Origin: a virus
Direction: 5' to 3' (one strand)
DNA: 36,120 nucleotides
Virus record (IMG/VR): IMGVR_UViG_3300048814_000010
Span: 1 to 36,120 of that record
Part shown: piece after piece, positions 7,353 through 33,977 of the stretch
Numbering within the stretch: the first letter of the stretch is position 1
How the letters are laid out: every line of letters starts with the position of its first letter
The notes under the pieces: generated by a model
Told to the model about the DNA's origin: nothing
Databases searched by the model: none
What the model saw: the letters and a program-made list of their open reading frames with translations, nothing else
Made by a program: the position numbers and the translations under genes

Positions 7353-8375
7353 TTACGCGCTGAGGTTGATGATCTCCGCGTTCCACTGCGGAGCGCGGTT
7401 GACGAGCGTCTCGTACTCGTTGATCATAAACCGCTCGCTGTCGTCGATCTTCGCCAGCGGTTGTGAGCCGATGGTCTGAAGCTCGGCGATCTCGATGATG
7501 TTCTCACCGGCGGTCTTCTCGCAGAGAATGAACGCGCTGGTCAGGCCAGCGGAGGGCTGGATGTACCGGGTCGGGACCAGCGGCAGAGAGCCGAAGTCCG
7601 AGTCGTAGTACATGACCGACACGCCGAGCTGACGCTCGACATGCACGACCCCGTCGCCGTTGACACGGACGAACGACTGGAGCAGCTCGTTGAAGAACCG
7701 CTTCTCGCGCGAGCCCAGCACGATGGCTGTCGGCTCGCCCAGGGCGTCGTAGACCTCCTGGATGACCGTGTTGATCAGCGGGATGCTGACCTTCTGGCCG
7801 CCCGCGAACGTGGAGGCGTCAACAAGGATGCCGCCCTCATTCGCGATGATCCGCTGGGTACCGTCGAACTGGAGGTACTCGACGGTCTGGGAGCCGTCCG
7901 AGTTGGTGACCACGTACGGCTGGGTGGAGTCACCGAACAGGAGGGCACCCTCCTCGCACTGAAGAACCGACACGGTCCGGGACTGCTGCTCCAGCGCGAG
8001 CTGGTCCGCGAAGGACCGACCGGCGGAGATCATCAGACCCGTGACGCGCCCGGTCTCGCCGAGGCACTTGACCTGCTTGCCCTTACGCAGGTACTTGGTG
8101 TTGCCGTCCTGCGGGAGCTGACCGTCAGCGTAGAACGAGCCGAGCCCATTCGTCGCCGTTGAAGACGGTGAGCCGAGGCTCGTGCGCTGCGTGTACTCGT
8201 GCGTCAGGCCGTTGGCCTTGACACGGGGCCACCGCTTACGAAGCGGCGTACCCTTCATGTCCACGCGCGTGATGATGCTTTCGAGGTCTTGACGGAGCAG
8301 AGCGCGCTCCGTGCTATCGACCGCCTTCTCGACGTTCGGTAGATCGAACGCCTCGGGGCTTACGAACTCAGCCAT
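7353..8375 (-). CDS. Major capsid protein (HK97 fold, predicted)
   Basis: A 340-residue protein directly downstream of the protease-scaffold gene, with AAAGGA eight bases before ATG 8375. Features of major capsid proteins include an N-terminal helix rich in charged residues (ALLRQDLESIITRVDMKGTP), a central helix followed by 'AIVLGSREKRFFNELLQSF', a 'GDGVVHVERQLGVSVMYYDSDFGSLPLVPTRYI' stretch typical of the A-domain core, and a C-terminal strand pair (EFIELQ-like, then ERFMINEYETLVNRAP). It would assemble with the scaffold and be matured by the prohead protease. HK97 fold is an inference from gene order and these segments; a structure prediction would settle it. Confidence 0.82.
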   Translation of the reverse strand: MAEFVSPEAFDLPNVEKAVDSTERALLRQDLESIITRVDMKGTPLRKRWPRVKANGLTHEYTQRTSLGSPSSTATNGLGSFYADGQLPQDGNTKYLRKGKQVKCLGETGRVTGLMISAGRSFADQLALEQQSRTVSVLQCEEGALLFGDSTQPYVVTNSDGSQTVEYLQFDGTQRIIANEGGILVDASTFAGGQKVSIPLINTVIQEVYDALGEPTAIVLGSREKRFFNELLQSFVRVNGDGVVHVERQLGVSVMYYDSDFGSLPLVPTRYIQPSAGLTSAFILCEKTAGENIIEIAELQTIGSQPLAKIDDSERFMINEYETLVNRAPQWNAEIINLSA

Positions 8376-8398: not shown

Positions 8399-8800
8399 CT
8401 ACGCGAGGTTTGCGTAGGCGGGGTGGCGAGCGTTCATCTTCTTCAGAGCGGTGACAGCGTCGTCCTCGTCCTGAATCTCCGTGGCCTTCTCGACCTCGGT
8501 GTCGGTGTGACCGACACTGGACGGAAGTTGACGGGCAACACTCTTGCGTCCCGCCGGGATCTCGTCGATGCGCTTGTTGACGTCGCGCAGCGCGCTGGCG
8601 ATCAGCTCGAAGCCCTCGCCGATTGTCTTCTCCACGGCATCCTCACGCTCCGTGAAGTGGTCGTATGCGACAGCGACCATCTTCTCGACATCGGTGTAGA
8701 CGTCGGGGGCGGTTTCGGGCTCGGTCTTGGCGACCTCTGCCGGGCGCTCATGGTTCTCGACCATGCCCTTCAGCACGTCGAGCGTGTCCTTCAGCGGCAT
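8399..8800 (-). CDS. Nested in-frame scaffold protein (internal start)
   Basis: Inside the protease-scaffold gene, ATG 8800 is preceded by a textbook ribosome site (CAGGAG, six bases before the ATG). Translation from here would give a 133-residue protein in the same frame that contains only the scaffold part: the LDVLK helix at its N-terminus, an acidic helical middle and a basic C-terminal end (ALKKMNARHPAYANLA). The start coincides with the domain border, which supports a real internal gene, as with lambda Nu3 inside C. A separate scaffold supply would allow a high scaffold-to-protease ratio during procapsid assembly. Confidence 0.55.
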   Translation of the reverse strand: MPLKDTLDVLKGMVENHERPAEVAKTEPETAPDVYTDVEKMVAVAYDHFTEREDAVEKTIGEGFELIASALRDVNKRIDEIPAGRKSVARQLPSSVGHTDTEVEKATEIQDEDDAVTALKKMNARHPAYANLA

Positions 8801-12803: not shown

Positions 12804-13181
12804 CTAGCCTGCGGTGAACTGATGCGGGAACATTGCCCCCACGGGGTTCCCGATCCCGTCTTGTCCGTAGCCACGCCACACGTAGACCCCGGCGTTGCGG
12901 ATCGGCAGCTCGGCGTTATAGATGCCCGCCGTCGTCTCGGCGACCAGCATGATGCCGTCCAGGCTAGCCCCAGCCCCGCTGATCGTCAGCGAGCCCGCGC
13001 CCGGAGTTGTGAAGTCGTAGAGCACGAGATTCGGGACCACGACGACCGCGTTGGTGGGGAGTACGTCGTCGTTCGTGAGTGTCGCCGTCTCGGCAAGTGT
13101 CAGGGTCACGACGGTGAACGCCCAGCGGCAGAGCACAACCGAGCCGACAGGGACATCTGGGTCCTGGATGATGGTGGTCAT
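12804..13181 (-). CDS. Hypothetical small beta-rich protein after the fibre gene
   Basis: This 125-residue protein follows the repeat fibre with an ATGA overlap. It reads as an all-beta domain: strands such as VVLCRWAFTVVTLTLAET, NAVVVVPNLVLYDFTTPG and GIMLVAETTAGIYNAELPI, ending in YVWRGYGQDGIGNPVG. I recognise no family. Coupling to the fibre gene suggests a fibre tip, chaperone or accessory adhesin, because phages often place such a gene directly downstream of a fibre. That is inference from position. Confidence 0.62.
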   Translation of the reverse strand: MTTIIQDPDVPVGSVVLCRWAFTVVTLTLAETATLTNDDVLPTNAVVVVPNLVLYDFTTPGAGSLTISGAGASLDGIMLVAETTAGIYNAELPIRNAGVYVWRGYGQDGIGNPVGAMFPHQFTAG

Positions 13182-16100
13182 ACGATGGTCTCCCCGCCAG
13201 CTACGTTGTCAAGCATGATTGTACCTCCGCGGACAGACACGGCCGGACGGCCCGAGCCAGAGACGCCCAATGTTGCCTGGGAGCCGCCGTTTGCGGTGAC
13301 AGGCAACCGCGCGCCAGAGGCAACGGGGACCAGGATGAACCCACCGCCCGTGACCCATGCGGGCACGAGAATGACGGTGCGCGCGAGGTCGGTGACCTCG
13401 TAGACGTAGTCCCCGGCACCGAACGTCTGCCACTCGACAAGCCCGGACGCTGGGGCGACATACAGGTAGCTGCCAGCCCCGGCGGCGGGGAGATAGGCGT
13501 GCTCCGTGATGCTGGCCGTGTAGCTGTAGGCTCCGGTCGCTGTAGCGGTGACCGTGACTACGCCTGCACCGGCGCTCGTGAACGGGTAGTTGACGGAGGC
13601 TACGCCCGGGTCCTGTGTGACCGCGACAGACGTCGGCGTGTAGAGGTACGCCGCGGTCGCCGTGATCGGGATACGCGCGAGCCCGGTACCAGTACCCGTG
13701 TAGCTGTAGGTCGCCGCCGCGGAAGCAGGGACCAAGGCCAGTCCGGTCGCGCCGCCGGTGAAGGTGTATGCGCCGGACGCCGAGGCGGGGACCGTGACGG
13801 TAGCCGTCGCCTGCGTGCTGTAGCTGTAGGTGACAGCGGTACCCGCAGGCACCCGTACGGTGCCGGTTGCCGTGTCGCCGTACAGGTAGGAGCCGGTCGC
13901 GCTCGCGGGAACGTCCACCAGGGCGGTTGCGCCGCTCGTGTAGCTGTAGGCGACAGCCGCGCCCGCCAGGACGTCTGTGGTCGCTGTCGCACTCGTACTG
14001 TACGTATACGCGCCGGTGCCGCTCGCCGAGACACGCACGAGCCCGGTGGCAGAACCCGTGAACGTGTAGGAAACGGTCGCGGACTCTGCCAGAGCCCCCG
14101 AGGAGGTTGCTGTGTAGCTGTACGCCCCGGAGGCGGAGGCGCTGAGACGAACAACGACACCCGTGGTCGAGGCGGTGTAGGAGTAGGTCCCGGGACCGGA
14201 GACCACGAGCGCGACAGCACCACTCGCGCTGTAGAGGTAACCTCCGGCCGCTGAAACCGGAACAACGACCCCCGCCGTTGCGGAAGACGTGTAGCTGTAG
14301 GTGACGGCGGCGGAGCCTGCCGCCCCGACGATAGCTGCGTTGGTCGCGGTGTAGAGGGCGCTGAGGCCGCCGGTTGCGGCCACCACGACCGTCGCTGCGG
14401 CGCTCGGACTGTAGAGGTACGCGCCGGTGGCCGCCTCGGAGAGAACCAGCACCGCTGCGCTAGAGCTGGTGTAGCTATACGCGCCGGTGCCGCTCGCGGG
14501 AACCTGGACAGTCCCGGCACTCGTGCTGGAGTACAGGTACGCGCCGGTCGCGGACGCCGGGACCTTGACGAGCCCGGTAGCCGAGCTGCCATAGAGGTAG
14601 CTGCCCGCACCTGACTCGGCGAGAACGAGGACCGCGGGTACCGTCGTGACGTAGCTGTACGTCGCCGTCGCAGACTCGGCGAGCGTCGGCACACCAGAGG
14701 CGGTGTAGAGGTAAGCCCCAGTGGCACTCTCCGCGAGGATAAGTACGCCCGGGGCTGTAGAGCTGTAGGTGTACGAGCCGGTGCCCGACACGAGCAAAGT
14801 CGGGCTGATCGCCGTACTGAAGAGGTAGGAGCCCGCCGCAGAGGCAGGAACCAGCACGAGCCCGGTCGCAGAGCTGCCGTAGCTGTATGTGGCAGAGCCG
14901 GACGCTAGGACCTTGACGAGGCCGGTCGCGTTGCCCGCGTACAGGTAGGTGGCACTCGCACTCTCAGCGAGAGCTACGGTCGCGGCGGCGGTGTAGCTGT
15001 ACGCCCCGGAGGCTGTGCTGGGGACGATGACCGTGGCGGCTGACGTCGAGCTGTAGAGATACGAGCCCGAGCCGGAGATGAGCAGCTCGATTGCAGCGCC
15101 CGTACTGTACGTGTAGACGGCTGCGGCGGAGGCCGGAACCTGAACGAGCCCGGTGACTGAGCCTGCGTAAAGATAGCCGCCTGCCGCGGTAGCAGGAGCG
15201 CTGACGAGCCCAGTGGCATTGCTGGTGTAGAGGTACGCCCCTGCACCGGTGACCGGAAGCACGAGAGTGGTTGCGCCGGACGCCGTGTAGAGATAGGGGC
15301 CTGAGCCGGAAGCCGGGACATCTACAAGCCCGGTAGCCGACGAGCTGTAGCTGTAGAGCGCAGCGGCGGATGTCGGAACGTCTACGATCCCTGTGGCTGA
15401 CGTCGAGTAGAGGTACGCGGGGGCGGCGGATGTGGCGAGCGCCACGGCGATAGACGGGGTGTAGGTGTACGCACCCGAGCCCGAGCCGGGGATCGTGAGT
15501 ACCGTCGCGGTCGCATTCGGGCTGTAGAGGTAGCCTCCCGAGCCTGCGACAAGGAGCGCCTCCGTAGCGGTGTCCGTGAAGAGAGGGGCACACGTACCCG
15601 AGGCACCTATCCACGTAATGGCCGTGGCTGTGTAGCCGTAGCTGTAGACCGGCGCCGCAGAACCAGAGAGGACGGTCGTGTAGGTGAGGACGACCTGACC
15701 GGCGGCACCCACGCCGCCCGCACTCGCGTTCGCGGAACCCTGCCCCCCACCGCCGCCGCCACCGCCAGGCCCAGCGGGAGTGCTTCCCGCTGTCCCGGAC
15801 GTGCCGCTGTAAGCACCGCCATTGCCGCCAGCGCCGCCGCCCGTAACGGCAGCGCCACCCGCCCCGTTTGTGGAAGATCCAGCGTTACCGGCCGCCGCCG
15901 TGCCACCACTGCCGCCCCCGCCGCCCATCGCGACGGCGGGGTTCTCGACACCGCCAGCGCCACCACCGTGGTGCGTTGTATCCGTTGACCCGGTGCCGCC
16001 AGCCGCCGCCGTCAAACTACCTGTAGGGCCGCCAGCGCCACCATGCGCCGTGACCGTAACGCTGCTCCCTGCAACGGTTGAGCTGCCGCCGGGGCCGCCG

Positions 16101-16342
16101 CCGTTATTCGCCGCGAACCCCGTCGATGCTGCGCCTGCCGTACCACCCGCCCCCACGACAACCGTGACAGTGCCGCCCGTGATGGCGAGCGTTAGCTCCT
16201 GCGCGAACTCACCACCACCACCACCGTTACCGTAGTAGCCGTTCTCGCCGCCGCCACCCGCGCCCCACGCCTGCGCCTCGATGGACGCGGGCAGGCCGGT
16301 CGGGTTGTGCGTGCCTGCGGTGGTGTAGGTGAGGACAGTCAT
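13178..16342 (-). CDS. Large repeat fibre/adhesin with glycine-rich head
   Basis: A 1054-residue protein. Residues 1-222 open with TVLTYTTAG...LPASIEAQAWGAGGGG and continue as a glycine-rich domain with many GGGG runs, like glycine-rich domains in phage tail adhesins. About 38 repeats of roughly 21 residues follow (226 to about 985), each built as G-[AS]-Y-[LST]-Y-[ST], then a small-residue stretch, then TGLV.VPAS. The last 65 residues form a different, non-repeat end (ending MLDNVAGGETIV). There are almost no charged residues in the repeats. This looks like an elongated beta fibre for host or surface binding. The start has AAAGG and GGGGG runs upstream; the stop overlaps the next ATG. Confidence 0.72.
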   Translation of the reverse strand: MTVLTYTTAGTHNPTGLPASIEAQAWGAGGGGENGYYGNGGGGGEFAQELTLAITGGTVTVVVGAGGTAGAASTGFAANNGGGPGGSSTVAGSSVTVTAHGGAGGPTGSLTAAAGGTGSTDTTHHGGGAGGVENPAVAMGGGGGSGGTAAAGNAGSSTNGAGGAAVTGGGAGGNGGAYSGTSGTAGSTPAGPGGGGGGGGQGSANASAGGVGAAGQVVLTYTTVLSGSAAPVYSYGYTATAITWIGASGTCAPLFTDTATEALLVAGSGGYLYSPNATATVLTIPGSGSGAYTYTPSIAVALATSAAPAYLYSTSATGIVDVPTSAAALYSYSSSATGLVDVPASGSGPYLYTASGATTLVLPVTGAGAYLYTSNATGLVSAPATAAGGYLYAGSVTGLVQVPASAAAVYTYSTGAAIELLISGSGSYLYSSTSAATVIVPSTASGAYSYTAAATVALAESASATYLYAGNATGLVKVLASGSATYSYGSSATGLVLVPASAAGSYLFSTAISPTLLVSGTGSYTYSSTAPGVLILAESATGAYLYTASGVPTLAESATATYSYVTTVPAVLVLAESGAGSYLYGSSATGLVKVPASATGAYLYSSTSAGTVQVPASGTGAYSYTSSSAAVLVLSEAATGAYLYSPSAAATVVVAATGGLSALYTATNAAIVGAAGSAAVTYSYTSSATAGVVVPVSAAGGYLYSASGAVALVVSGPGTYSYTASTTGVVVRLSASASGAYSYTATSSGALAESATVSYTFTGSATGLVRVSASGTGAYTYSTSATATTDVLAGAAVAYSYTSGATALVDVPASATGSYLYGDTATGTVRVPAGTAVTYSYSTQATATVTVPASASGAYTFTGGATGLALVPASAAATYSYTGTGTGLARIPITATAAYLYTPTSVAVTQDPGVASVNYPFTSAGAGVVTVTATATGAYSYTASITEHAYLPAAGAGSYLYVAPASGLVEWQTFGAGDYVYEVTDLARTVILVPAWVTGGGFILVPVASGARLPVTANGGSQATLGVSGSGRPAVSVRGGTIMLDNVAGGETIV
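13387..15667 (-). repeat. About 38 tandem coding repeats of roughly 63 bases
   Basis: The repeat region of the fibre gene. At protein level each unit has a Tyr-x-Tyr core, most often YLY or YSY, followed by a variable stretch and often TGLV-x-VPAS. At DNA level the cores appear on the given strand as GTAGAGGTA (YLY type) or GTAGCTGTA (YSY type), and the two types often alternate. Units vary between about 19 and 22 codons and are diverged, so they are an old expansion and not a recent slippage product. Confidence 0.8.
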
Positions 16343-17891: not shown

Positions 17892-18499
17892 TAGTGATCG
17901 TGCCTACTGAGCTGGTTCTTGTGCTCCGGGTTGGTGCCGTCCCCGCCGGTCTTGATCCCCTTGAGCTTGGCGTGATCCCAAATCTCCTTCTGGTTGCGCC
18001 TCTTGCCGACACGCTTCGCGAAGACCTTGTTGCGGTAGTTGTCACCCGGCTCAACCCCGAACTTGGGGACGATAGTACCGTCCTCCTCCTTATGGGTCTG
18101 GTCGTACCAGACGCCCAGGTTGCCGGTGCCGTGCGCGTAGTGCTCCGGGTGCTTGGCGATATGCGCGAGCACGAACTCGTGAAGCTCCGCGGCTGTCGGG
18201 GAGCCCTCGACGTCCTCGCTCGCGCTGGACTGGCGGGCTGCGCTGTAGCCGGTCGTGATCTCCTGGCCGGTGCGCGGGTCCACGGTGATGCCACCGTTCT
18301 CGATGGCGGCCTTGGCGTGCTCGCGCGTGAACTGGCCGCCCTCGGGCGAGCCTGCGGGGACGCGCGCTTCGTCGTCGCCTTGGATCATGTGCCCGTAGCT
18401 GCCGCCTGTTTTGTCCACGTCACCTAGTGTAGCAGTCTTCTCGGCCTTCGGCTTCGGCGGGTGCAGAGCATCCCAGAGTGCCTTGTCAACGGGGCTCAC
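17891..18499 (-). CDS. Capsid-associated protein with VPAGSPEGGQF motif
   Basis: A 202-residue protein from GTG 18499 (GTGA overlap with the polyvalent gene). The motif ARVPAGSPEGGQFT at about residues 45-58 is a short sequence often found in actinophage head-associated and MuF-linked proteins. The C-terminal half ('NLGVWYDQTH', then 'RNQKEIWDHAKLKGIKTGG') resembles a small domain repeatedly seen in phage polyvalent proteins, with a WYD strand and an NQxxIWD helix. Function unknown. The neighbour and motif suggest it is packed in or attached to the capsid together with the MuF protein. Confidence 0.6.
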   Translation of the reverse strand: MSPVDKALWDALHPPKPKAEKTATLGDVDKTGGSYGHMIQGDDEARVPAGSPEGGQFTREHAKAAIENGGITVDPRTGQEITTGYSAARQSSASEDVEGSPTAAELHEFVLAHIAKHPEHYAHGTGNLGVWYDQTHKEEDGTIVPKFGVEPGDNYRNKVFAKRVGKRRNQKEIWDHAKLKGIKTGGDGTNPEHKNQLSRHDH

Positions 18500-21400
18500 T
18501 TGTAACCAGCTTTCTTGTCCTCAGCGTCATTCCAGGCTTTGTTCTTCAGCTTAGCAGACGCCTCGGCATCGACAGGCCCCGGGTCGGTATTGCCCTTTGT
18601 CTGCTGGTACTCGTCGTCGCTCATCCCCTCGGGCTTGTCCTTGTCGGGCGCAGGCTTCTCGTTGAGGTAGACGTGGGTAATGCCGTGCTGGTTCTCGTAG
18701 TCCACAAAGTGCTCAACCTCCTTGACCTCGAACTCGCCCGCAAGAACACGCTCGTGTTCGCCCGCGTTGCCACCGAGCAGCTCAAAAGCCATTGTCTTGG
18801 GAGGGACGTGCAAGATGACCTTCTGCTTCTTGTTGTACGCCGCGACCGTGGAGTTCGCCATCCCCCCGAACATATCGGCAGTGCTTTCGCTGGAGGTCCA
18901 GGACGAGATTGGCACGTCGATCTTCTTGCCTGCCACGAATAGACGGTCGATGTCAGCCTGAGCCATTCGGACGCCGCGGTGCAACGGCACGTAGGAGGGG
19001 CGAGCGTACTCTGCTGCCTGCGCCATAAAGGTGTGGGCCAGCCGCACTCCTGTTGCCTGGTCGGCTTCTGGGTAGGCAGTACCAATCTCATCATCGGCTT
19101 GATACTCGTCTGGGGCTAGCTCGGGGGTTGGCGCGTTGCCGAGCGCGACCTTCTTGATCTCAGCCTCGAACGCAGCGTCTACCACATCGTAGCCGGGCAT
19201 ATCTTCGTCGTTGCGAGGGTGCTTGGCGTGACCCTCCCGCGGGTTGTACGGATAGCAGTGGACCCACGTAGCAACCGACTGCTCGCGCAGGCTACGTGCG
19301 GCGGTCGCGGCCTTGGCTTCCGGGGTGTCCAGGTTGTAGAGTGTGTTCTCACGGATCGCGCGGTCATTGTCCCGGCGCTCCACGTCGGATCCACCGGCAC
19401 GTGTCCACTCGCCCGGATGGATGCGCCCCTCGCTCTTGCCGCCCTTGGGGATACGCAGCTCGGTGGCCTTGACGACATCAAATGTAGCGGAGTCGCTATA
19501 TTTGACGGCCTCCTCCTCCCCGACACGCGGGACGGTGCCCTGCCCCTTCTCCTGGAGCTTCTGCTGGATCGTCTCACGGTCCACCAGCTTGCCTGACTCG
19601 TCCCGGTTAGCGACCTTGTCCTCCGGGTTGCCGACCGACTGCTGCAAGCGAAGCTCGGCGGCGAGGCTGTCGCGACCGTTGCGCTCCTGCGGGGTGTCCG
19701 AGTACAGGATGCGATTCGAGCAGGGTGCCTGGGCTCCGCGGCGCCAGATCCGGGCGATGCGCTGCTGAAGGTCCGCGTTGTTCTGTGGCATGTCGGCGTG
19801 GATCATCTGTGTCGCGCCGTTCTGGAACACGCCACCGTTGTCGCCGAACTGGAGTGAGCGCGCGGTCTTGTTGGTGTCGGAGGTGATCAGGACCGCGGCA
19901 CCCTTGCAGGCGATGAAGTCGCGGAGCACCCGGTCGTTTGCGGCGGCGTCGCCTCCCTGCGTGTAGAACACTTTGCGCCCCCCACGACGCTCAAGTTCTT
20001 CACGGATCGGCTGGAGCGGCTGGGTTTCCGCTCCGAACACGACCGCCTTGGGCGCATACGTGCCAGCGTTCTCGCCGTCTTGGTGGGTGTGGTGACCCTT
20101 GAAGCCTGCGAACTCGGTGGGCTTCTGTCCTTCGATCATGTCCGCGATCTTGTTGACGCGCGCGTTCGGGCCTTGGTAGCCGCGCTGTTGTGGCTTCATC
20201 AAGGCGGACATCTGTGCGCCACGGCCACCGAACGACGGGAGCTTAGGCAGGTCTTCGTTCGGGACGCCTGAAAGCTTCTGGCGGTGCCGCTCCTCCCATG
20301 CCTCGTTGAACTCTTGGGCTGCGTCAGTGATCGCTGCGGTGTGCCCCTCCTCCAGCGGGGCGTCCACCCAGTCGAGTTCGGGGAACGGCGGCATCGCGCT
20401 CATGTTCGGTGCCTGGAAGAACGCGCCGTCGGCGCAGCTCTCACGGAACTGTTGGACACGCTCGTTGCCGGTGAGCTGGTCGAACTGGTTGAGCTGTCCG
20501 TAACGGTCGCTGAAGGCACTCTTCGAGCCGTAGTGGCCGGGCTTCGCCCAGTTGAGCAGGGTGTGAAGCTCGCCCATGTTCTTCTCCAGCGGGGTGCCTG
20601 TCAGTGCCCAACGGTGTTCAACGGCACTAGGGGTGGCGGCAGCCATCACGCCAGCGTAGTTTTGAGTGTCTTCGTTCTTGTAGTATTGTGCCTCATCGGT
20701 GATCACGATGGTGTGGCCGAGATCCTTGACCAGCTCGGGGTTCTTGGCGAGCGTCTGGAAGCTGACGATATTGAAGTCGCCGGGCTGCTGCAACGCGCGC
20801 TTCTTCGGGCCCACGCCCTTCGACTGCTCCCAGTCATAGGTGGCAGGGTCGTCGCCTTCGCCTGGGCCTGCACGCCCGAGCACGGTCATGCTTTTGCCGG
20901 GGCAGGTCTGCTGGATCGTCTTCGCCCATGTGCCTGCGACCGCGGTAGCTGGAGCGACGATCAGGACGCGCGTGCCAGGCTTCTGGCTCATAAGCTCAAG
21001 AGCCGCTCCGATAGCTGTGTCTGTCTTGCCGACACCCGGCGCAAACGCAAGCACCCCAGAGCCCGCTGCTCGCAGGTACAGCGAGCCTTGTGCCTGGGCA
21101 CGGTCGAGGGTGCGCGAGTAGCCGGGCGGGTGTGAGGCAGTCTCGATAGCGGCATCCATGTCTTCGCCGGTGCGGATGTCGTGCAAGAGCCCCGCGTTGG
21201 GGTCGTGACCTTCTGACGGCGCAAGGAGTGAGCTGATCTGCTTGGCGCTGAGCTTCAGGTTGTAGCGCCCGGCGCCTTCGCGCTCAATCATCGACGGGGT
21301 GACGTGGACGTCCGCCTTGTGTGCCAGCTCCATGATCAGCGCCTTCGAGCCGAACCCTTCGACGCGCACCGTGTCGATCTTCTTGCCGAGCATCGTCTGA

Positions 21401-24378
21401 AGCGTGTGCAGGGCTTCGCTGCCCGCAACGGCCATACCAAGCGACTGGGCGGCCTCACGCATCTTGCGGACCTGCCGTGAGCGCGCAGCGGTCAGCGTGA
21501 ACATGCTTTCGCCCTTGGCGCTTGCCTTGAGTTCTTCACCGGCGGCGGCTGCCTCGCGTGCAGCGAAGCGTGCCCGGTTGAGGTCGAGACGCATGATCGC
21601 TGACTGGCGCTCGTCGGTGATGTCGTCGATGGTGGACTTGAGCTTGTCCATGTCGAGGTCACCGGCGTCGGTGGCCTTCCGTAGCTCGTGCGCCATGATC
21701 TGTGCGGTGCCGTTCACGCCGAGTAATGCCTGGAGGCGGGTGGGGAGCACTGTCTTGCCGAACACGCTGTAGCTCAGCGAGTCGAAAGCGTCGAAGCAGC
21801 CGTGTTGGATTGCCTGAGAGACAAGCGAGTTGGATCGCTTGCGTGCAGTCTCGACGTCGTTCAGTAGCTCCCGGTTGATCTCGGTAAGGGCCTCAGAGGC
21901 CGCTTTGCGTTGTGCTTCCGCAGGCGCGTCAATGGGTGACCAGTCGAGTCCGGCACTGTCCTCTGGCCGCGTCTCCCCGGAAAGGACCTTATTAGCCTCC
22001 CGAACTCGTCTGCGTAGGGCGCTGGCGGTCGCAAGCTCCTCGTAGATGCTATCCGCGTCTTCTGTTGAGAGAGCAAGACGCGGACGGACTCGGCTTGAGC
22101 GTTCAGGCTCCTCGTTGTAGATCGAGTCTTCGGTGTCTTCGTCTGTATCGTCGGCGGGGGTGTCGTCGGAGGATGCAGGGCTATCGTCCTTGTCTCGGGG
22201 GGCTGGGGTGACTACGATAGGTCCGACCGGCGCTTCGCTACGGTTCGCGTCGGACAGGTTACCGTAGGTGGACTGGTACAGGCTGTCGTGTGTGGCGCGT
22301 TGGATCAGCTCGTGCTGGTCAGCGGAGGACAGGTCATCCCATTTGACGGGCTCGCCTGCGACCAGGGCGCCGCGGTCTTCGACCAGGCGTTGCACGTGCG
22401 CCTCGACGCGGTCACGCGCTTCGCGGAGGAGCTGCTGGGCTGTGGCCTTGCCTTCGCGGGCTGTGTTTGCCATCTCCTCGGTGACCTCGCCTGGATCATA
22501 TTGGCGTGGCGGCTTCGCTGCGCCCTTGCGATCCATGCGGCCCTTCTCACCGATCCGCACATGGTCGAGGTGGTGGCCTGCGCCGCCAATGATCGAAGCG
22601 GTGCCGTCGCCGTTCTCGCGCACGAGCACCGGGATGCCCTTCTCGTCGTCGCCGTGCGGGTGTATCGTGATCCAGTGTTCTGTGCCTACCGCGGTGTGGT
22701 TGACCTCGGCACGCTTGAAGATGTGCCAGCGTGAAGGCTTCTCGATGGTGGCGTGCGGGAACACCTTGTCGAGCGGCGTCGCCTCCAGGATCGCTTTGAC
22801 CTCCACCAGTGGACCGTACTGGTGGACGTACTGCCAGATGAAGTTGCCGATCCCGTAGGTGCCGGTCGCCTCATCGTAGCCCTGCTTGCGCAGGTCGTGA
22901 AGGACGGTGTATGCGGCCTGAAGTTCGGCGAGCGCGCGGTCACGTGTCTCGGGTGGTTCGCCAGGACTGTAGGCACGGAGAGCCGCGGTCAGGTCGTCGG
23001 CGAGCTGTGCCGCGACCTGCACCCATTCGGGGTGCTCGACCGCGAACTCTCCGCCCAATCCCTCCAGGATGTGTTCGTTGACGACGTCCTCGCTGTACGG
23101 GACGGGGAGCGGCGGGGTGACCCATGTGTTGGCGGCCAGGTCGTAGGCGGGCTGGTTGGACGCGCGCACGTTGTACGCGAATAGGCTGGGCGAATCTTCG
23201 GGCCGGATGAAGGCGTCGAGCGGCAGGCCCGGGGCGACCTCGAAGTCGCCGAGCGCAAGCTTGGTCTGGGTGACGAGCGCGACGTGCAGCTCCTCCTCGG
23301 TGAGCTTCGCGTACTCCTTGTGCGCCGTGCGGAGCTTGTCGTAGTCCACCACGATCTGGAGGTCGAGGTCACCGATAGCGGACTTCTCGCCCCACATGTA
23401 GGTGCAGACCGAGCCGGACAGGTAGATCGAAGACCAGTCCCCGGCGTCAGCGCCGAGCGTGTGGTGCCACCAGTCGATGATGCGCTGGCGCACGTCGTGG
23501 CGCAGCTTGATGCCGGACCAGACGAGCGGGTCGAGTCCGGGCTCAGGGTTGTCGAAGAAGCCCTTCGCGACGTCCTGGTCGTGCCGGTACTTCTCGACTG
23601 CGGAGCCGAGCATCAAGGTGTACGGATCGACGCTTGCGATGTCCTCAGCGGTGTAGGTCTTGTACTGGATCTCGGCGAGCTGAGCGAGACGCGGGTCGTT
23701 CGCGTATTCGGGCTTGAGCTGGCCGGACGACTCGAACATCTCGTCGAGCGCGCGTCCCGTGAGCCCGAGATCCTCGGCTGCCTTGTACTGGGCCTGCATG
23801 TCCTCGTACACGCTGGGGACGTAGGCGACCGCGACATGACGGCATTGCGGGTGGAGTGGGATGCAGGCAACCCATTCGCGGGTGGGCTTGCCGTAGTTCG
23901 AGCCGTCACGGAACTCGTCGATCTTGAATATCTTGTTCTCGATCAGGCGCTTGCACTGGGAGCATGAGCCGACGTGTGGCGGAACCCACACCCGCTCGAA
24001 GCCCATCTTCTTGCAGGCGTCCAATCGTCCCATGTGGTTGGCGCGGATCATCTCGGTGCGTGCGATCAGCCGCCAGTTGATCTCCGCCTCATGGGTGGCA
24101 TGGTAGATCCAGGATGCGACCTGTGTGGGGTTCACGGCCTGCTGTGTGCCGTACAGGACAGCGGAGCGGATCTTGTCCACGTAGCGGTCCACTGCACCCT
24201 CGAACTCGTGGAGGGTGTAGGTGCGCAGCCACTTCAGCGCGTTGACCTTGGTTGGTGCCTCGCCGCCGAAGAAGTCGAGGCCGTGCGGCAGGTCGCCGGT
24301 CATCTCGATGAACTGGGTGATCTGCTGCTCCCCCAGGTCGTAGCTTTTCGCCGGATGGGAGCGTGCCTCATCCATCAT
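18496..24378 (-). CDS. Polyvalent protein: MuF + nucleotidyltransferase + SNF2 helicase + ADP-ribosyltransferase
   Basis: A 1960-residue protein. Residues about 50-195 match the MuF/SPP1 gp7 head morphogenesis domain (RLIARTEMIRANHMGRLDAC; cysteine pair C139/C142 and HPQCRH). Residues 318-345 have a nucleotidyltransferase core (LSGSVCTYMWGEKSAIGDLD). Around 565-610 is the EHWITIHPHGDDEKGIPVLV segment seen in other phage polyvalent proteins. Residues about 1095-1570 are SNF2-type: Walker A APGVGKT, DEAQ at 1228-1231, ALTGTP at 1258-1263 and QQRIARIWRRGAQ near 1538-1550. Residues about 1795-1890 form an R-S-E ADP-ribosyltransferase: LHRGV (R1801), SSWTSS (1825-1830) and EHE (E1874/E1876). The likely role is packaging in the capsid and delivery with phage DNA. 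ATG 24378 has GGAAG upstream. Confidence 0.82.
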   Translation of the reverse strand: MMDEARSHPAKSYDLGEQQITQFIEMTGDLPHGLDFFGGEAPTKVNALKWLRTYTLHEFEGAVDRYVDKIRSAVLYGTQQAVNPTQVASWIYHATHEAEINWRLIARTEMIRANHMGRLDACKKMGFERVWVPPHVGSCSQCKRLIENKIFKIDEFRDGSNYGKPTREWVACIPLHPQCRHVAVAYVPSVYEDMQAQYKAAEDLGLTGRALDEMFESSGQLKPEYANDPRLAQLAEIQYKTYTAEDIASVDPYTLMLGSAVEKYRHDQDVAKGFFDNPEPGLDPLVWSGIKLRHDVRQRIIDWWHHTLGADAGDWSSIYLSGSVCTYMWGEKSAIGDLDLQIVVDYDKLRTAHKEYAKLTEEELHVALVTQTKLALGDFEVAPGLPLDAFIRPEDSPSLFAYNVRASNQPAYDLAANTWVTPPLPVPYSEDVVNEHILEGLGGEFAVEHPEWVQVAAQLADDLTAALRAYSPGEPPETRDRALAELQAAYTVLHDLRKQGYDEATGTYGIGNFIWQYVHQYGPLVEVKAILEATPLDKVFPHATIEKPSRWHIFKRAEVNHTAVGTEHWITIHPHGDDEKGIPVLVRENGDGTASIIGGAGHHLDHVRIGEKGRMDRKGAAKPPRQYDPGEVTEEMANTAREGKATAQQLLREARDRVEAHVQRLVEDRGALVAGEPVKWDDLSSADQHELIQRATHDSLYQSTYGNLSDANRSEAPVGPIVVTPAPRDKDDSPASSDDTPADDTDEDTEDSIYNEEPERSSRVRPRLALSTEDADSIYEELATASALRRRVREANKVLSGETRPEDSAGLDWSPIDAPAEAQRKAASEALTEINRELLNDVETARKRSNSLVSQAIQHGCFDAFDSLSYSVFGKTVLPTRLQALLGVNGTAQIMAHELRKATDAGDLDMDKLKSTIDDITDERQSAIMRLDLNRARFAAREAAAAGEELKASAKGESMFTLTAARSRQVRKMREAAQSLGMAVAGSEALHTLQTMLGKKIDTVRVEGFGSKALIMELAHKADVHVTPSMIEREGAGRYNLKLSAKQISSLLAPSEGHDPNAGLLHDIRTGEDMDAAIETASHPPGYSRTLDRAQAQGSLYLRAAGSGVLAFAPGVGKTDTAIGAALELMSQKPGTRVLIVAPATAVAGTWAKTIQQTCPGKSMTVLGRAGPGEGDDPATYDWEQSKGVGPKKRALQQPGDFNIVSFQTLAKNPELVKDLGHTIVITDEAQYYKNEDTQNYAGVMAAATPSAVEHRWALTGTPLEKNMGELHTLLNWAKPGHYGSKSAFSDRYGQLNQFDQLTGNERVQQFRESCADGAFFQAPNMSAMPPFPELDWVDAPLEEGHTAAITDAAQEFNEAWEERHRQKLSGVPNEDLPKLPSFGGRGAQMSALMKPQQRGYQGPNARVNKIADMIEGQKPTEFAGFKGHHTHQDGENAGTYAPKAVVFGAETQPLQPIREELERRGGRKVFYTQGGDAAANDRVLRDFIACKGAAVLITSDTNKTARSLQFGDNGGVFQNGATQMIHADMPQNNADLQQRIARIWRRGAQAPCSNRILYSDTPQERNGRDSLAAELRLQQSVGNPEDKVANRDESGKLVDRETIQQKLQEKGQGTVPRVGEEEAVKYSDSATFDVVKATELRIPKGGKSEGRIHPGEWTRAGGSDVERRDNDRAIRENTLYNLDTPEAKAATAARSLREQSVATWVHCYPYNPREGHAKHPRNDEDMPGYDVVDAAFEAEIKKVALGNAPTPELAPDEYQADDEIGTAYPEADQATGVRLAHTFMAQAAEYARPSYVPLHRGVRMAQADIDRLFVAGKKIDVPISSWTSSESTADMFGGMANSTVAAYNKKQKVILHVPPKTMAFELLGGNAGEHERVLAGEFEVKEVEHFVDYENQHGITHVYLNEKPAPDKDKPEGMSDDEYQQTKGNTDPGPVDAEASAKLKNKAWNDAEDKKAGYK

Positions 24379-24483
24379 CTGCGTCTTCCAGTCAGCAAGG
24401 ACCTGTTCGACGTTCTGGTATTCAGCGACGGAAAGCCTCCGGGAGAGCGGAGGCTGGTCTGCGGTAGGTATGATGCGACCCTT

Positions 24484-24835: not shown

Positions 24836-25038
24836 GGGTACTCCAGTCTCTCGATGACCCGTCGCTCCAGTCTCTCGACGCTTGCGCGTTCAAGGGAGAC
24901 GCGATACTCCAACTCGGAACGCCTGGACGGCACCATTCCGAAGTGCCTGCCCCACAACTCAAGCTCGTACTCGGCGTCCGCGAGACGCATACGAGCGCGC
25001 CCGAGACGGCGCTCAAGTCGTCTGACTCTGCCGATCAC
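24832..25038 (-). CDS. Arg-rich coiled-coil protein
   Basis: A 68-residue protein from GTG 25038, which shares bases with the upstream TGA (GTGA); AAGGTG lies upstream. The sequence is a basic coil (RVRRLERRLGRARMRLADAE, then YRVSLERASVERLERRVIE). A longer frame upstream overlaps the GH16 gene and is low-complexity. Possible oligomerisation or DNA-contacting protein; the role is unknown. Confidence 0.55.
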   Translation of the reverse strand: MIGRVRRLERRLGRARMRLADAEYELELWGRHFGMVPSRRSELEYRVSLERASVERLERRVIERLEYP

Positions 25039-25979
25039 TGCCACACCTTGACCGATGCGACCTTCATCACCAGCGGGAACACCGTCGTCGCGTCCGGCGC
25101 GGGCGCCCACCCGTCGCCAGGCCAGCCGACGCCAACGTTGATCCGCGGGTAAAGCGCCTGGTTGTCAAACGGCCACCGGTAGTCCGGGTGGTCCGCGTTC
25201 CACTGCGTGGACGTCACCTGGAAGGTCGCCTGGCCGTTGATGGCGACCGTGATGATGCCCGGCTGCCAGTCCAGTGACGCCACGATAGGCTTCGTCGTAT
25301 CGACCGGAGACGACCCGCCAACCTCGTCACCGTCGGTGTAGGCGTGGATCGTGACGTGGTTCAGGTTGAGGTTGGCGCTCTGGATCTCAAGCACGTCGAT
25401 CTCGCGGCCCACGCCTACGGGCGCCGCGGGGTCAATGAACCAGACCGCGAACCATGCGCCCGCCGTGCGCGGGACCGACGTGACATAGGTGTCGAACTGG
25501 CCGTGGCCCCACGTCACGCCGGGTGTCTCGATCATCCCTGACGTGTACGGGTGGCCGCCGCCGTCGATTGACTGGTTGCGTAGCGTCAGCTTCACGCCGG
25601 AGCCGTCGAGACTGACACCCGAGGCGTCGTACAGGGTCGTCGCATATCCGTCGTCGCCCTCGTGCGGCACCCAGTCTGCGGGTAGCTTGGTCCCGTTGAA
25701 CTCGTAGTCCTTGACCAGTGTCTTGTAGCTCCTGATCAGCACCATGCCCGCGGCGAGCGTGATCGGCTGTGGACCGGCCGCTGGGGGCGGCGGGGGCGGA
25801 GCTGGTTTGACGATGGCGCCCGGGGTGAGCGTCACTACAGCCTGATTCGGCTTCACGCCGAACGTGACGCTGTGCGGCTGCAACTGGTTGGCCGGTGGGT
25901 GCTCAGAGGCCGTCGATGTGACCGTGACCGGAAGCTCCGAGCCATCTCCGAACGGAACGGTAAACGTGGTAGAGGTCAC
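25035..25979 (-). CDS. Glycoside hydrolase family 16-like enzyme
   Basis: A 314-residue protein (GTG start). Residues 1-55 form a beta-rich N-terminal domain (TFTVPFGDGSELPVTVTST), followed by a proline linker (KPAPPPPPPAAGP). Residues about 85-314 look like a GH16 beta-jellyroll: GHGQFDTYVTSVPRTAGAWF, then the catalytic-type motif EIDVLE (193-198; E193 nucleophile, D195 helper, E198 acid/base by family rules), then NLNHVTIHAYTDG, and a late YPRINVGVGWPGDGW. GH16 enzymes cut beta-1,3/1,4-linked polysaccharides such as laminarin or agar-type glucans and galactans. Here it is probably virion-borne or released to strip surface glycans. There is no signal peptide. Confidence 0.75.
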   Translation of the reverse strand: MTSTTFTVPFGDGSELPVTVTSTASEHPPANQLQPHSVTFGVKPNQAVVTLTPGAIVKPAPPPPPPAAGPQPITLAAGMVLIRSYKTLVKDYEFNGTKLPADWVPHEGDDGYATTLYDASGVSLDGSGVKLTLRNQSIDGGGHPYTSGMIETPGVTWGHGQFDTYVTSVPRTAGAWFAVWFIDPAAPVGVGREIDVLEIQSANLNLNHVTIHAYTDGDEVGGSSPVDTTKPIVASLDWQPGIITVAINGQATFQVTSTQWNADHPDYRWPFDNQALYPRINVGVGWPGDGWAPAPDATTVFPLVMKVASVKVWQ

Positions 25980-29352: not shown

Positions 29353-29705
29353 GCCTCCTTGTAGTGATCCATGACCATCTGGTACGTCTCTGCGTACCCT
29401 GCGATGTCCACAACACTATCATGCTTCGAGGGCGTCTGTTGCAGCCGTGAAAGCTTGACGCAGATCATCGCCAATGCCACCTGCTCCGGTTTGACGTCCC
29501 AGCCGAACAGTGCCTTCCACATCCCTGCGGTGCGCTCGAAGTCCTCGTGTGGGGGACCGTAGTCTCGACCGCGGTCAGCGTGAACTAGGGTGTGGGCCTC
29601 TTTGCACGGGGACTGGAAAGACGACACCTTGGGCTCGAAGTCCTCGGCCATAAAGGGAGGACCCACGTCGGGCCGCGGCGTGCAGTCAGCGAGTGTGGGC
29701 GGCAT
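29349..29705 (-). CDS. DUF6378-like protein
   Basis: A 118-residue protein from ATG 29705, preceded by GGGAGG. The core motif 'RGRDYGPPHEDFERTAGMWK', then 'EQVALAMICVKLSRLQQTPS' and 'KHDSVVDIAGYAETY', is the pattern of the DUF6378 family common in tailed phages of many hosts. The conserved acidic and Lys residues suggest an enzyme-like or nucleotide-binding role, but no activity is established to my knowledge. It sits beside a DUF4406-like gene, a pairing consistent with nucleotide metabolism or defence-related chemistry. Confidence 0.75.
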   Translation of the reverse strand: MPPTLADCTPRPDVGPPFMAEDFEPKVSSFQSPCKEAHTLVHADRGRDYGPPHEDFERTAGMWKALFGWDVKPEQVALAMICVKLSRLQQTPSKHDSVVDIAGYAETYQMVMDHYKEA

Positions 29706-30213
29706 CGAGATCCTCCCGTGAGGTTGGGGTCAGGGGCTGCCCTCCGGCATCGTTGTAGTCCCAGACCGGGAGCTTGCAGATGCGAGCCACGAACGTCTCC
29801 AGCCGTGCCCCACGCGAGCGTGACCAGCCCGGCAAGACAACGACACCCTCGACAGAACCACCACCAATCAGCTTGACGTCACGCGCCAAGAAGTCCGCCC
29901 AGCTCTCCCCGTTCGCCGAGCCCGAGCCGGGAGCACCGTCAGGGGACGCTATGGCTACAGCGCGCGTCTCGGGATTATCCAGCTCGGCGGGTGAGAACAC
30001 CTCGTAACCCAGGTCGCGGAGCCGGGTTGCAGCGGCGTCGAAGGCAGGGATGTTGAACGCGGGGATGCCGGTCATCGGCCCCGCGAGATAGAGGGCCGCC
30101 CCGTGCTCGGGCCTAAGTGTTGGTGGGGTGATGATCTTCCCGCACCGGGCACACGACCCACTGTAGCGGGGGTCAGCGGATACGAGGTGTTCCTGTCCGT
30201 CTAGGCAGGGCAT
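29686..30213 (-). CDS. DUF4406-like protein with N-terminal zinc ribbon
   Basis: A 175-residue protein. The N-terminus has CLDGQEHL and CARCGK, a likely small zinc site. Residues 40-150 match the DUF4406/nucleoside deoxyribosyltransferase-like pattern: YLAGPMTGIPAFNIPAFDAA, then LRDLGYEVFSPAELD, WADFLARDVKLI and VEGVVVLPGWSRSRGARLE. Proteins of this superfamily act on N-glycosidic bonds of nucleosides, so a role in nucleotide turnover is plausible. Its stop lies 20 bases inside the next gene. A TAATG links it to the small gene upstream. Confidence 0.75.
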   Translation of the reverse strand: MPCLDGQEHLVSADPRYSGSCARCGKIITPPTLRPEHGAALYLAGPMTGIPAFNIPAFDAAATRLRDLGYEVFSPAELDNPETRAVAIASPDGAPGSGSANGESWADFLARDVKLIGGGSVEGVVVLPGWSRSRGARLETFVARICKLPVWDYNDAGGQPLTPTSREDLDAAHTR

Positions 30214-31891: not shown

Positions 31892-33868
31892 CTACAGCGT
31901 AGCAGCATGATCGGACAGGGGTACCCCGAGCAGTTTCTCCAGGTCGGAGAGCAGCCGATCCTTGCCGCGGTCGAAGACGTCGGTCAGCGACTCCTCGTGG
32001 TCATCCATCGCGGGGTCAGTCGTCTTGCCTACACTCAACCCCGCCGCATGAGCCTCAACCGCCGCGCGGGCCACCTTGAAGTCATCCCCCCGGTGAACCA
32101 TTCGCTGCGTGCCGAAGGGGTCGGTGTGGTAGGCGTGCCAGCGTAGGCCACCAGCCGCCGTGTTCTGTCGGACAACGTGATATTGGTGGCGACCGAGTGT
32201 GGCGCTGTAGTTCTTTCCACCCGGACTCTTTGTCCATGAGAGGGCCTTCTCGACATCGGAGGTCTTGCCAAGCGGCATCTGCTTGGGGCCGACGCCCTGC
32301 TCCAGGTTGTGCTGACCCATCGCAGCCTGCGTATCCTTGTCGCCGGGCTGCGCTGGCTTCCAGGGCATCGTGCCTGGACCGGAGCCCTGCTCCTGCATCG
32401 CGTCCATCTGCTGTTCCTGCTGTTCCTTCTGCTGTTGCTGTTGAGCGGCAGCACCCATAACTGCTATGTCCTGCTCGGTAGGGAGCGGGTTGAGCTGTCC
32501 GGCGACGAGCAGCATGTCGGCGCCCTCCTCCTCGGAGGGCTCGTCACCGACGGCCTCGCGCCACTCGTTGCGTGACCACGCACCCGCATCGACACGGGCC
32601 TTGTAGAGCGTGTCGAGGATGGTCTCATCTTCGCCGCCGCGGTCAAACTCGAACTTGACGATGTCCCCGACACCGAGCCCGTGCTCGCCGATGATCTCGA
32701 CTTCCCACACGTCCTCGATCAGGGCCAGGATCGGCTCGACGCTGGTGGACTGGTTGGAGCCCTCCTGCTCGTCGGCTGTGGAGCGGTTGACGTCCTCGAT
32801 CAGCCCGATCTCCTGCGGGGCGATCTGGTACACGGCGCACATCTTCTTGACCAACCAGTTCTGGTAGGCCATGTACTCCATGTCCTTGTTGGACTGCCGC
32901 CACTCGACCCACTCGACGCCCTTGCCGCCGATGATCGGGATAGCCCAAGGCTTGCCCATGATCTCGTTCATCCAGTAGAGGCGAAACTCGTCCACGTCCT
33001 CTGGGGTGGTCTCCTCGCCCAGGTTGAGGAGGCCCTCGGGCACCGCGCCCTTCTCGAAGTAGCTGGAGTTGTACTTGGAGGCGTACAGCTCGGCGCACAC
33101 GCTGACGATCAGGTGCTCCATCGGGCTGTAGCCGTAGCCCATGAAGCGCACGTCGGTCTGCGGGTTGTCCATCGCGTAGACGAGATCCTCCATGCCGAAG
33201 CGCGCGACCACCATGCCGTCCACGATCTGCACATAGGCGTCATCGTGGTAGCCGCCATACTGGTCGATGTTCGGCTGGATCGTCGCGCCGTCCACCGGGT
33301 ACATGGAAAGCACCCACTTGGCGAGGTTGCGCTCCTTCTCGATACAGCCCGCGTCGAGCACGAGCAGGTCGTCGAGGAACTCCTGGACGAACTGCCGCCA
33401 CGAGCGCGAGGACGGACGCGAGCCGTACATGCTCGGGCGCTTGAGGAGCTTGGTGACCTCGTCGCAAAGCTTCTTGGTAGACGGTGAGGAGTCCTCCTCG
33501 TCCTTCGGCTTGACAGCCCACTTGGTGTCGCCGATCTGGTTCTTGCGCGTCTTGATGATCGCCTGCGCCCACTCCGAGCGGTTCGCCATCTGGCGGAGCG
33601 TGGTATAGGTGACCGATGTCGGCTTTGGCTTGCCGCGGGTCGGGTCCCAGACCTGCTGGAGGCTGGTGCCGCGCGAGCGCACCTTCTTCTCGACCTCCTC
33701 GGTCTTGCCGACGTAATCGTCGCCCTGTACCATCACGTTGTCGAGGACGTACTTGATCGTCTCGGGGTCACCGGCGATGCGCCTAGCTTCGTCGAGCGAG
33801 ACCTTCCGTACTGTCGTGATCGGTTCGCCGTTCGGCCCTAGCAGGCCGGGTATGAAACTCTGAGGCAT
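31892..33868 (-). CDS. Portal protein with C-terminal extension
   Basis: A 658-residue protein. The start at ATG 33868 is supported by AGGA eight bases upstream. Residues 60-440 follow the HK97-type portal layout: LRQMANRSEWAQAIIKTRKN, SWRQFVQEFLDDLLVLDAGC, VRFMGYGYSPMEHLIVSVCA, and a clip-like region ending with QNWLVKKMCAVYQIAPQEIG. A Gln-rich linker (QQQQQKEQQEQQ) at about residues 480-500 leads to a C-terminal extension of about 115 residues with KSPGGKNYSATLG and a final helix (DRLLSDLEKLLGVPL). The portal forms the DNA channel at one vertex. The extension may face the inside of the head or bind cargo. Confidence 0.88.
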   Translation of the reverse strand: MPQSFIPGLLGPNGEPITTVRKVSLDEARRIAGDPETIKYVLDNVMVQGDDYVGKTEEVEKKVRSRGTSLQQVWDPTRGKPKPTSVTYTTLRQMANRSEWAQAIIKTRKNQIGDTKWAVKPKDEEDSSPSTKKLCDEVTKLLKRPSMYGSRPSSRSWRQFVQEFLDDLLVLDAGCIEKERNLAKWVLSMYPVDGATIQPNIDQYGGYHDDAYVQIVDGMVVARFGMEDLVYAMDNPQTDVRFMGYGYSPMEHLIVSVCAELYASKYNSSYFEKGAVPEGLLNLGEETTPEDVDEFRLYWMNEIMGKPWAIPIIGGKGVEWVEWRQSNKDMEYMAYQNWLVKKMCAVYQIAPQEIGLIEDVNRSTADEQEGSNQSTSVEPILALIEDVWEVEIIGEHGLGVGDIVKFEFDRGGEDETILDTLYKARVDAGAWSRNEWREAVGDEPSEEEGADMLLVAGQLNPLPTEQDIAVMGAAAQQQQQKEQQEQQMDAMQEQGSGPGTMPWKPAQPGDKDTQAAMGQHNLEQGVGPKQMPLGKTSDVEKALSWTKSPGGKNYSATLGRHQYHVVRQNTAAGGLRWHAYHTDPFGTQRMVHRGDDFKVARAAVEAHAAGLSVGKTTDPAMDDHEESLTDVFDRGKDRLLSDLEKLLGVPLSDHAATL

Positions 33869-33977
33869 GGTGATCCTGTCGGTTGAGACGCGGGACAGCG
33901 ACGTAGCCCGGCCAGCGCAGGCTACGCTCAACGTCTGCGATGCACTCCCAGACGTCCATCTGGTGATGTTCAGGCAT
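33783..33977 (-). CDS. Small hypothetical gene overlapping the portal start
   Basis: A 64-residue frame (MPEHHQMDVWECIADVERSL..., then RWPGYVAVPRLNRQDHHASE) that fills the gap between a small gene and the portal but runs 86 bases into the portal gene. The first 40 residues look protein-like; the last 20 are Arg-rich and probably shadow sequence. No ribosome site is seen. It may be a short gene whose end lies inside the portal gene, or it may be non-coding. Confidence 0.35.
   Translation of the reverse strand: MPEHHQMDVWECIADVERSLRWPGYVAVPRLNRQDHHASEFHTRPARAERRTDHDSTEGLARRS

What the first reader, a model, noticed from the sequence alone, without database searches (positions are those of the whole stretch)
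18496..24378. One 1960-residue protein joins a capsid MuF domain to a nucleotidyltransferase fold, an SNF2 helicase and an ADP-ribosyltransferase
The sequence shows, in order, a MuF-type region, a GS...DLD nucleotidyltransferase core, an EHWITIHPHG segment, intact SNF2 motifs (GVGKT, DEAQ, TGTP, QQRIARIWRRG) and a complete R-S-E ART triad (HRG, SSWTSS, EHE). MuF-linked polyvalent proteins are known in phages and are thought to enter the cell with the DNA, as DarB of P1 and Alt of T4 do. Combining a helicase that could act against restriction with an ART effector on one capsid-bound protein would give the phage several early attacks at once. This exact combination is the best candidate for a new system in the window.
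Basis: partly seen in the sequence, partly recalled or inferred. Interest (0 to 1): 0.9.

Follow-up and report, generated by a model that had tools for sequence, protein, structure and literature searches.

The report
Phage head protein joined to helicase
An uncultured phage makes one giant protein that joins a capsid part to a probable nucleotide-adding enzyme, a DNA motor and a possible ADP-ribose-adding enzyme, an unusual new layout of a known class of proteins thought to be injected into bacteria with the phage DNA.

Summary
The 1960-aa ORF (minus strand, 24378..18496) is real. Homology confirms a MuF minor-head domain (~43-201) and a SWI2/SNF2 ATPase (1088-1640; Pfam 7e-21, PHROG DNA helicase 6e-49). 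The nucleotidyltransferase (271-540) is well supported: 46 mostly stand-alone phage homologues, invariant GS...DxD, a confident model, but no significant PDB match. The 'EHWITIHPHG' segment is the N-terminal signature of a widespread phage SNF2 protein family whose genes often follow MuF genes. The C-terminal ADP-ribosyltransferase (ART) is not confirmed: R-S-ExE motifs are present, but every profile search failed and a single-sequence fold was unusable.

Relatives suggest how it arose. In sister contigs the portal is followed by a 580-aa MuF-nucleotidyltransferase without SNF2 or ART. In other phages EHWI-SNF2 is a separate gene, ending 54-89 aa after the last helicase motif. Here the two are fused, with ~410 extra residues. 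No second copy was found.

This is a new architecture of Iyer and Aravind's polyvalent proteins, not a new kind of system. SNF2 plus a different ART already occurs in relatives, and MuF plus ART is known in actinophages. Most likely it is built into the head and delivered with the DNA; antirestriction is less certain, because no DarB-type methylase is present.

The parts
18496..24378 (-). Whole ORF, 1960 aa (P0001); open frame extends to 24483 without ATG/GTG/TTG
23776..24252 (-). MuF minor-head domain, residues ~43-201, with CxxC (139-142) and CIPLHPQCRH (172-181)
   Evidence: PHROG minor head families; 45% identity over residues 4-535 to a 580-aa MuF-NTase protein directly after the portal in sister contigs; MuF zinc signature
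22759..23568 (-). Nucleotidyltransferase domain, residues 271-540 (GS 322-323, D337, D339, probable third acid D388)
   Evidence: homologous to stand-alone proteins of Streptomyces phages LuckySocke, GiJojo, pSt2308 and 46 further viral loci; AF2 pLDDT 83; Foldseek viral match to a nucleotidyl transferase domain protein
22549..22680 (-). EHWI segment, residues 567-610: N-terminal signature of the phage SNF2 protein family
   Evidence: matches positions 16-59 of phrog_62; Mecenats66 and PHB04 helicases; 80 viral and 29 genome loci
21118..22548 (-). Middle region, residues 611-1087; partly conserved in EHWI-SNF2 proteins
   Evidence: alignment A2 and BLASTP, mid-region hits E about 1e-5
19459..21117 (-). 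SWI2/SNF2 ATPase, residues 1088-1640, with intact motifs I (GVGKT 1115), II (DEAQ 1228), III (TGTP 1260), VI (QQRIARIWRRG 1538)
   Evidence: Pfam SNF2-rel_dom 7e-21 and Helicase_C; phrog_62 6.5e-49; PDB SNF2 remodellers
18589..19047 (-). ART-like region, residues 1778-1930: HRG (R1801), SSWTSS (1825-1830), EHE (E1874, E1876); fold not confirmed
   Evidence: motif pattern only; profile searches negative; AF2 unusable; not found in the relatives
31892..33931 (-). Portal protein, upstream in the same gene run
   Evidence: Pfam Phage_portal 4e-29; 52% identical in sister contigs
7353..8375 (-). Major capsid protein, downstream
   Evidence: PHROG major head protein; 71% identical to sister contigs

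Best explanation
This is a virion-borne polyvalent effector of an uncultured tailed phage. The MuF domain most likely builds the chain into the prohead next to the portal, as in MuF minor-head proteins. The fused cargo (nucleotidyltransferase, EHWI-SNF2 translocase and a probable ART) is then delivered with the DNA at ejection, whole or after proteolysis. The SNF2 motor would act on the incoming duplex DNA, and the transferases would modify host proteins or nucleic acids early in infection. It most likely arose by fusion of a MuF-NTase gene with a neighbouring EHWI-SNF2 gene plus a new C-terminal domain. Shown: the ORF, the MuF, NTase and SNF2 homologies, the conserved gene order and the separate forms in relatives. 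Inferred: packaging, delivery, enzymatic activity, targets and the direction of the fusion. The ART step is the least certain (about 0.7, by motif only).
For: MuF and SNF2 profile matches. The ortholog in sister contigs is a 580-aa MuF-NTase protein following the portal, with portal 52%, MCP 71% and intervening genes conserved. EHWI-SNF2 is a separate gene in Mecenats66 (overlapping the minor head gene, before prohead protease and MCP) and in PHB04. 22 of 51 EHWI loci have a MuF-signature ORF upstream, against 0 of 296 control ORFs. N-terminal effector swapping (InPase, ART-PolyVal, PBECR2) in the same family is typical of polyvalent proteins. A DarB-like protein was found in purified virions of Burkholderia phage JC1 (PMC9144972). 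GC content is even along the gene.
Against: No virion proteomics exists for this phage or, in what I read, for an EHWI-SNF2 protein. The ART has no homology or fold support. No DarB-type methylase is present. Only one example of the full architecture was found, in a metagenomic contig. A 1960-aa chain on several MuF copies may not fit in the head or pass through the tail without unfolding or cleavage.
Confidence: 0.6

Rival explanations
1. The polyprotein is cut by the capsid protease: MuF stays in the head as a structural part, and the SNF2/ART portion acts inside the head or infected cell (for example on packaging or late gene expression) rather than being delivered with MuF.
For: MuF-NTase and EHWI-SNF2 are separate proteins in relatives, so no function requires them to be joined; a prohead protease gene lies next to this module in Mecenats66.
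Against: If separation were needed, fusion would be a burden; no cleavage site was identified. Even cleaved products may be packaged.
Confidence: 0.2
2. The C-terminal domain is not an ART; the HRG/SSWTSS/EHE pattern is coincidental and the tail is a structural or unknown domain.
For: No Pfam, PHROG, PDB, phage or VIP2-profile match; AF2 single-sequence model unusable.
Against: Three motifs in ART order and spacing, not seen in 654 control proteins or 20,000 shuffles, though the pattern is post hoc; ARTs are the commonest protein-modifying domains of polyvalent proteins (PMC5512222) and are often fused to MuF (PMC9503650).
Confidence: 0.25
3. The fusion is an assembly artefact joining two genes.
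For: Single instance, metagenomic contig, no relative with the same architecture found.
Against: 1995 open codons without a stop, even GC, in-frame joins, and the same sister phage matches the genes on both sides.
Confidence: 0.05
4. The SNF2 module works as a DarB-type antirestriction factor in cis.
For: Related SNF2 proteins match DarB-like PHROGs; 43 of 111 EHWI loci carry a DarB-like methylase protein nearby.
Against: No such methylase in this protein or window; DarB action is thought to rest on the methylase-helicase pair (PMC5512222).
Confidence: 0.3

Closest known systems
Polyvalent proteins of phages and conjugative elements (Iyer et al. 2017, PMC5512222)
   Same: Many effector domains on one chain encoded among head genes; SWI2/SNF2, ART and Pol-beta NTase are all in the repertoire
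   Different: This exact order MuF-NTase-EHWI-SNF2-(ART) was not met; [quoted passage not shown]
EHWI-SNF2 'DNA helicase' proteins (phrog_62; Morganella phage Mecenats66 ORF61, Bordetella phage PHB04 ATI15643)
   Same: EHWITIHPHG head, middle region and SNF2 core; position near MuF, protease and MCP
   Different: There a separate gene ending 54-89 aa after motif VI, with other N-terminal partners; here fused behind MuF-NTase with a ~410-aa tail
MuF-VIP2 ADP-ribosyltransferase fusions of actinophages (Percival gp4, Goodman gp5, Arthrobacter phages)
   Same: MuF-type minor head protein fused to an R-S-E type ART
   Different: No NTase or SNF2 found; their ART matches Pfam ADPrib_exo_Tox, the tail here does not
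DarB of phage P1
   Same: Head-associated giant protein with a SWI2/SNF2 ATPase
   Different: DarB carries an adenine methylase before the helicase; none here
LuckySocke gp186 family (Streptomyces phages)
   Same: Homologous nucleotidyltransferase-like domain with GS...DxD
   Different: Stand-alone ~330-aa protein, not next to head genes in the stretch examined

Membership tests
MuF minor head proteins | Sequence match to minor-head/MuF families | tested here: met
   (several PHROG minor head families); Pfam Phage_min_cap2 and Phage_Mu_F match only below cut-off
MuF minor head proteins | CxxC...HPxC signature and gene position after the portal | tested here: met
   (in this window 7.5 kb of small genes separate it from the portal)
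MuF minor head proteins | Present in the virion | not testable with these tools
   uncultured phage
Polyvalent proteins | Several conflict-type enzymatic domains on one chain encoded with virion genes | tested here: met
Polyvalent proteins | Known polyvalent hub domains (MPTase, ArdC-N, LPDs, ART-PolyVal) in this protein | tested here: not met
   none at E<=1 (common but not required)
Polyvalent proteins | Delivery into the host with DNA | not testable with these tools
EHWI-SNF2 family (phrog_62) | EHWI head plus SNF2 core | tested here: met
EHWI-SNF2 family (phrog_62) | Protein ends shortly after motif VI (observed in relatives here, not a published criterion) | tested here: not met
   54-89 aa in about 52 complete relatives, ~410 aa here
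DarB | Adenine methylase coupled to SNF2 | tested here: not met
R-S-E ART (Alt/VIP2 type) | R, S and ExE motifs in order | tested here: met
   motif level only
R-S-E ART (Alt/VIP2 type) | Profile similarity to ART families | tested here: not met
R-S-E ART (Alt/VIP2 type) | ART fold | tested here: inconclusive
   pLDDT 38
R-S-E ART (Alt/VIP2 type) | NAD+-dependent transfer | not testable with these tools
   needs an assay
Pol-beta type nucleotidyltransferase | hG[S/G]...DxD plus a third acidic residue | tested here: met
   GS and DxD invariant in 35 sequences; third acid probably D388 here, a shifted E in others
Pol-beta type nucleotidyltransferase | Fold match to solved nucleotidyltransferases | tested here: inconclusive
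   no PDB hit below E 0.001; TENT2, TUT4 and CutA only at E 0.09-0.3; viral library match to a nucleotidyl transferase domain protein

The most novel reading that the evidence does not exclude
A single head-anchored protein carries three independent effectors (nucleotidyltransferase, SNF2 translocase and a divergent R-S-E ADP-ribosyltransferase of no known family) and delivers them together. It would be an R-S-E ART in a genuine polyvalent protein, with the ART possibly modifying DNA or DNA-bound defence proteins met by the translocase.
Probability: 0.3. Interest if true: 0.65.

Novelty: new variant of a known kind. Interest (0 to 1): 0.45.

Why it matters
It shows two virion genes, separate in relatives (MuF-NTase and EHWI-SNF2), joined with an extra domain, so it records how polyvalent proteins may grow. 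It gives the EHWI-SNF2 family, annotated only as 'DNA helicase', a physical link to a capsid protein. If the tail is an ART, it would be a new family and an exception to the published statement that R-S-E ARTs are absent from genuine polyvalent proteins.

Tried and rejected
Whole-protein and ART-only scans of viral contigs, ART searches of phages and plasmids (one non-significant Rhodococcus match, E 2, not followed), PDB by sequence, profile comparison with eight phage VIP2-like ARTs and shuffled controls: nothing for the ART. One short query joined two separate pieces of the ART region; it was rejected as too short and not repeated in that form. AlphaFold on residues 1640-1960 alone was unusable. 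The Pfam Phage_Mu_F model was too narrow to map MuF genes in relatives, so a zinc-signature count was used instead. A genome scan with MuF-NTase found no prophage relative. Nothing recognisable as an immunity protein was found among the genes just downstream that I scanned. Assembly artefact was considered and judged unlikely. DarB membership was rejected for lack of a methylase.

Full report
OBSERVATION. The ORF is on the minus strand, 24378..18496, 1960 aa, without internal stops. The window is a 36,120-base IMG/VR virus record with portal at 31892-33931, major capsid at 7353-8375 and, at the low end, a 466-aa ORF that I read by eye as a tail-sheath protein. All quoted motifs are present.

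MUF. Residues ~43-201 match several 'minor head protein' PHROGs (2e-6 to 5e-4) and phrog_6577 (9e-11) and carry CxxC...CIPLHPQCRH. A viral-contig scan with the portal gave three sister contigs (L006, L007, L008; portal 52% identical). In these the portal is followed directly by a 580-aa protein 45% identical to residues 4-535. Portal, this protein, a small gene, the 637- and 457-aa proteins and the capsid protein (71%) keep their order. P0001 is therefore the positional ortholog of a MuF-NTase minor-head protein.

NTASE. Residues 271-540 are homologous to stand-alone ~330-aa proteins of Streptomyces phages and to 46 further viral loci, where the protein is mostly stand-alone. G-S, Y, W and D-x-D are invariant in the 35 sequences aligned. 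The third acid is probably D388 here and an E two residues earlier in most others; my inference is that both lie on the same strand face. AlphaFold with 35 sequences gave mean pLDDT 83. Foldseek found 11 phage predicted structures at E < 1e-3, one named nucleotidyl transferase domain protein. PDB matches were not significant; terminal nucleotidyltransferases appear only at E 0.09-0.3, behind glutathione transferases. The NTase reading is probable, not proven.

EHWI-SNF2. The EHWITIHPHG segment matches the first 60 positions of phrog_62, a 1881-position DNA-helicase family, and the SNF2 core matches the same family (6.5e-49) and Pfam SNF2 (7e-21). In Morganella phage Mecenats66 and Bordetella phage PHB04 the whole EHWI-middle-SNF2 unit is a separate protein. 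In Mecenats66 its gene overlaps the minor head gene and precedes the prohead protease and MCP. An alignment query found 80 viral and 29 genome loci. In about 52 complete members the protein ends 54-89 aa after motif VI; in P0001 about 410 aa follow. N-terminal partners vary: InPase (L035, L092, L130, L131), ART-PolyVal (L035, L106, L130) and weak PBECR2 (L106) ahead of SNF2; L125 and L128 carry InPase or PBECR2 with an EHWI motif but without a detected SNF2, and L091 carries a portal with EHWI. A MuF-signature ORF lies within 9 kb upstream in 22 of 51 distinct loci, against 0 of 296 downstream ORFs, and is never fused. A DarB-like methylase protein lies nearby in 43 of 111 loci but not in this window.

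ART. HRG (R1801), SSWTSS and EHE (E1874/E1876) follow in ART order. No profile, sequence or fold evidence could be obtained. The motif combination did not occur in 654 other proteins or in 20,000 shuffles, but the pattern was written to fit, so this is weak. From the motif spacing and my knowledge of ART sequences I put the probability of a true ART at about 0.7 (judgement, not a test).

MECHANISM. Most likely: MuF anchors the chain in the head near the portal; the cargo is delivered at ejection; SNF2 moves on incoming DNA; NTase and ART modify host targets. Packaging and delivery follow from established knowledge of MuF proteins, DarB and Alt (PMC5512222) and from virion detection of a DarB-like protein in phage JC1 (PMC9144972); none of it is shown for this protein.

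NOVELTY. MuF + ART fusions are known (PMC7302621; PMC9503650), SNF2 + ART occurs in relatives found here, and Pol-beta NTases are known polyvalent domains. The specific chain was not found elsewhere in the collections searched. I file it as a new variant of a known kind. [quoted passage not shown]

LIMITS.

Noticed in passing
window 24378-24483 (-): The MuF ORF is open 35 codons upstream of its first ATG with no ATG/GTG/TTG; the translation there (...VLADWKTQ) resembles the N-terminus of the sister protein P0002, and AGAAGGG precedes ATC/ATA codons. A rare start codon is possible.
   Followed up: partly
window 9727-11637 and 8402-9793 (-): A motif of the form L-[D/E/K]-[D/E]-[S/T]-LDVLK (one copy A-E-D-A-LDVIK) recurs four times in the 637-aa protein and once in the next protein before MCP; it could be a scaffold- or capsid-binding repeat.
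   Followed up: no
window 25035-25979 (-): A GH16-type glycosyl hydrolase (Pfam 5e-7) lies among small genes between portal and MuF, where the sister contigs have no gap.
   Followed up: no
window 34648-35448 (-): Papain-family cysteine peptidase (Pfam C1, 4e-8) upstream of the portal.
   Followed up: no
window 13178-16342 (-): A 1054-aa protein with a glycine-rich start and many tandem Ser/Ala/Tyr-rich repeats, between MuF and capsid genes.
   Followed up: no
L106 8156-14038, L130 8156-14491: Polyvalent proteins in bacterial genome contigs with ART-PolyVal plus PBECR2 or InPase in front of EHWI-SNF2.
   Followed up: partly
L091 8417-11635: A portal protein carries the EHWI segment at its C-terminal side, so EHWI looks like a mobile module linked to head proteins, function unknown.
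   Followed up: no
window 29686-30213 (-): DUF4406 / nucleoside 2-deoxyribosyltransferase-like gene in the late region.
   Followed up: no
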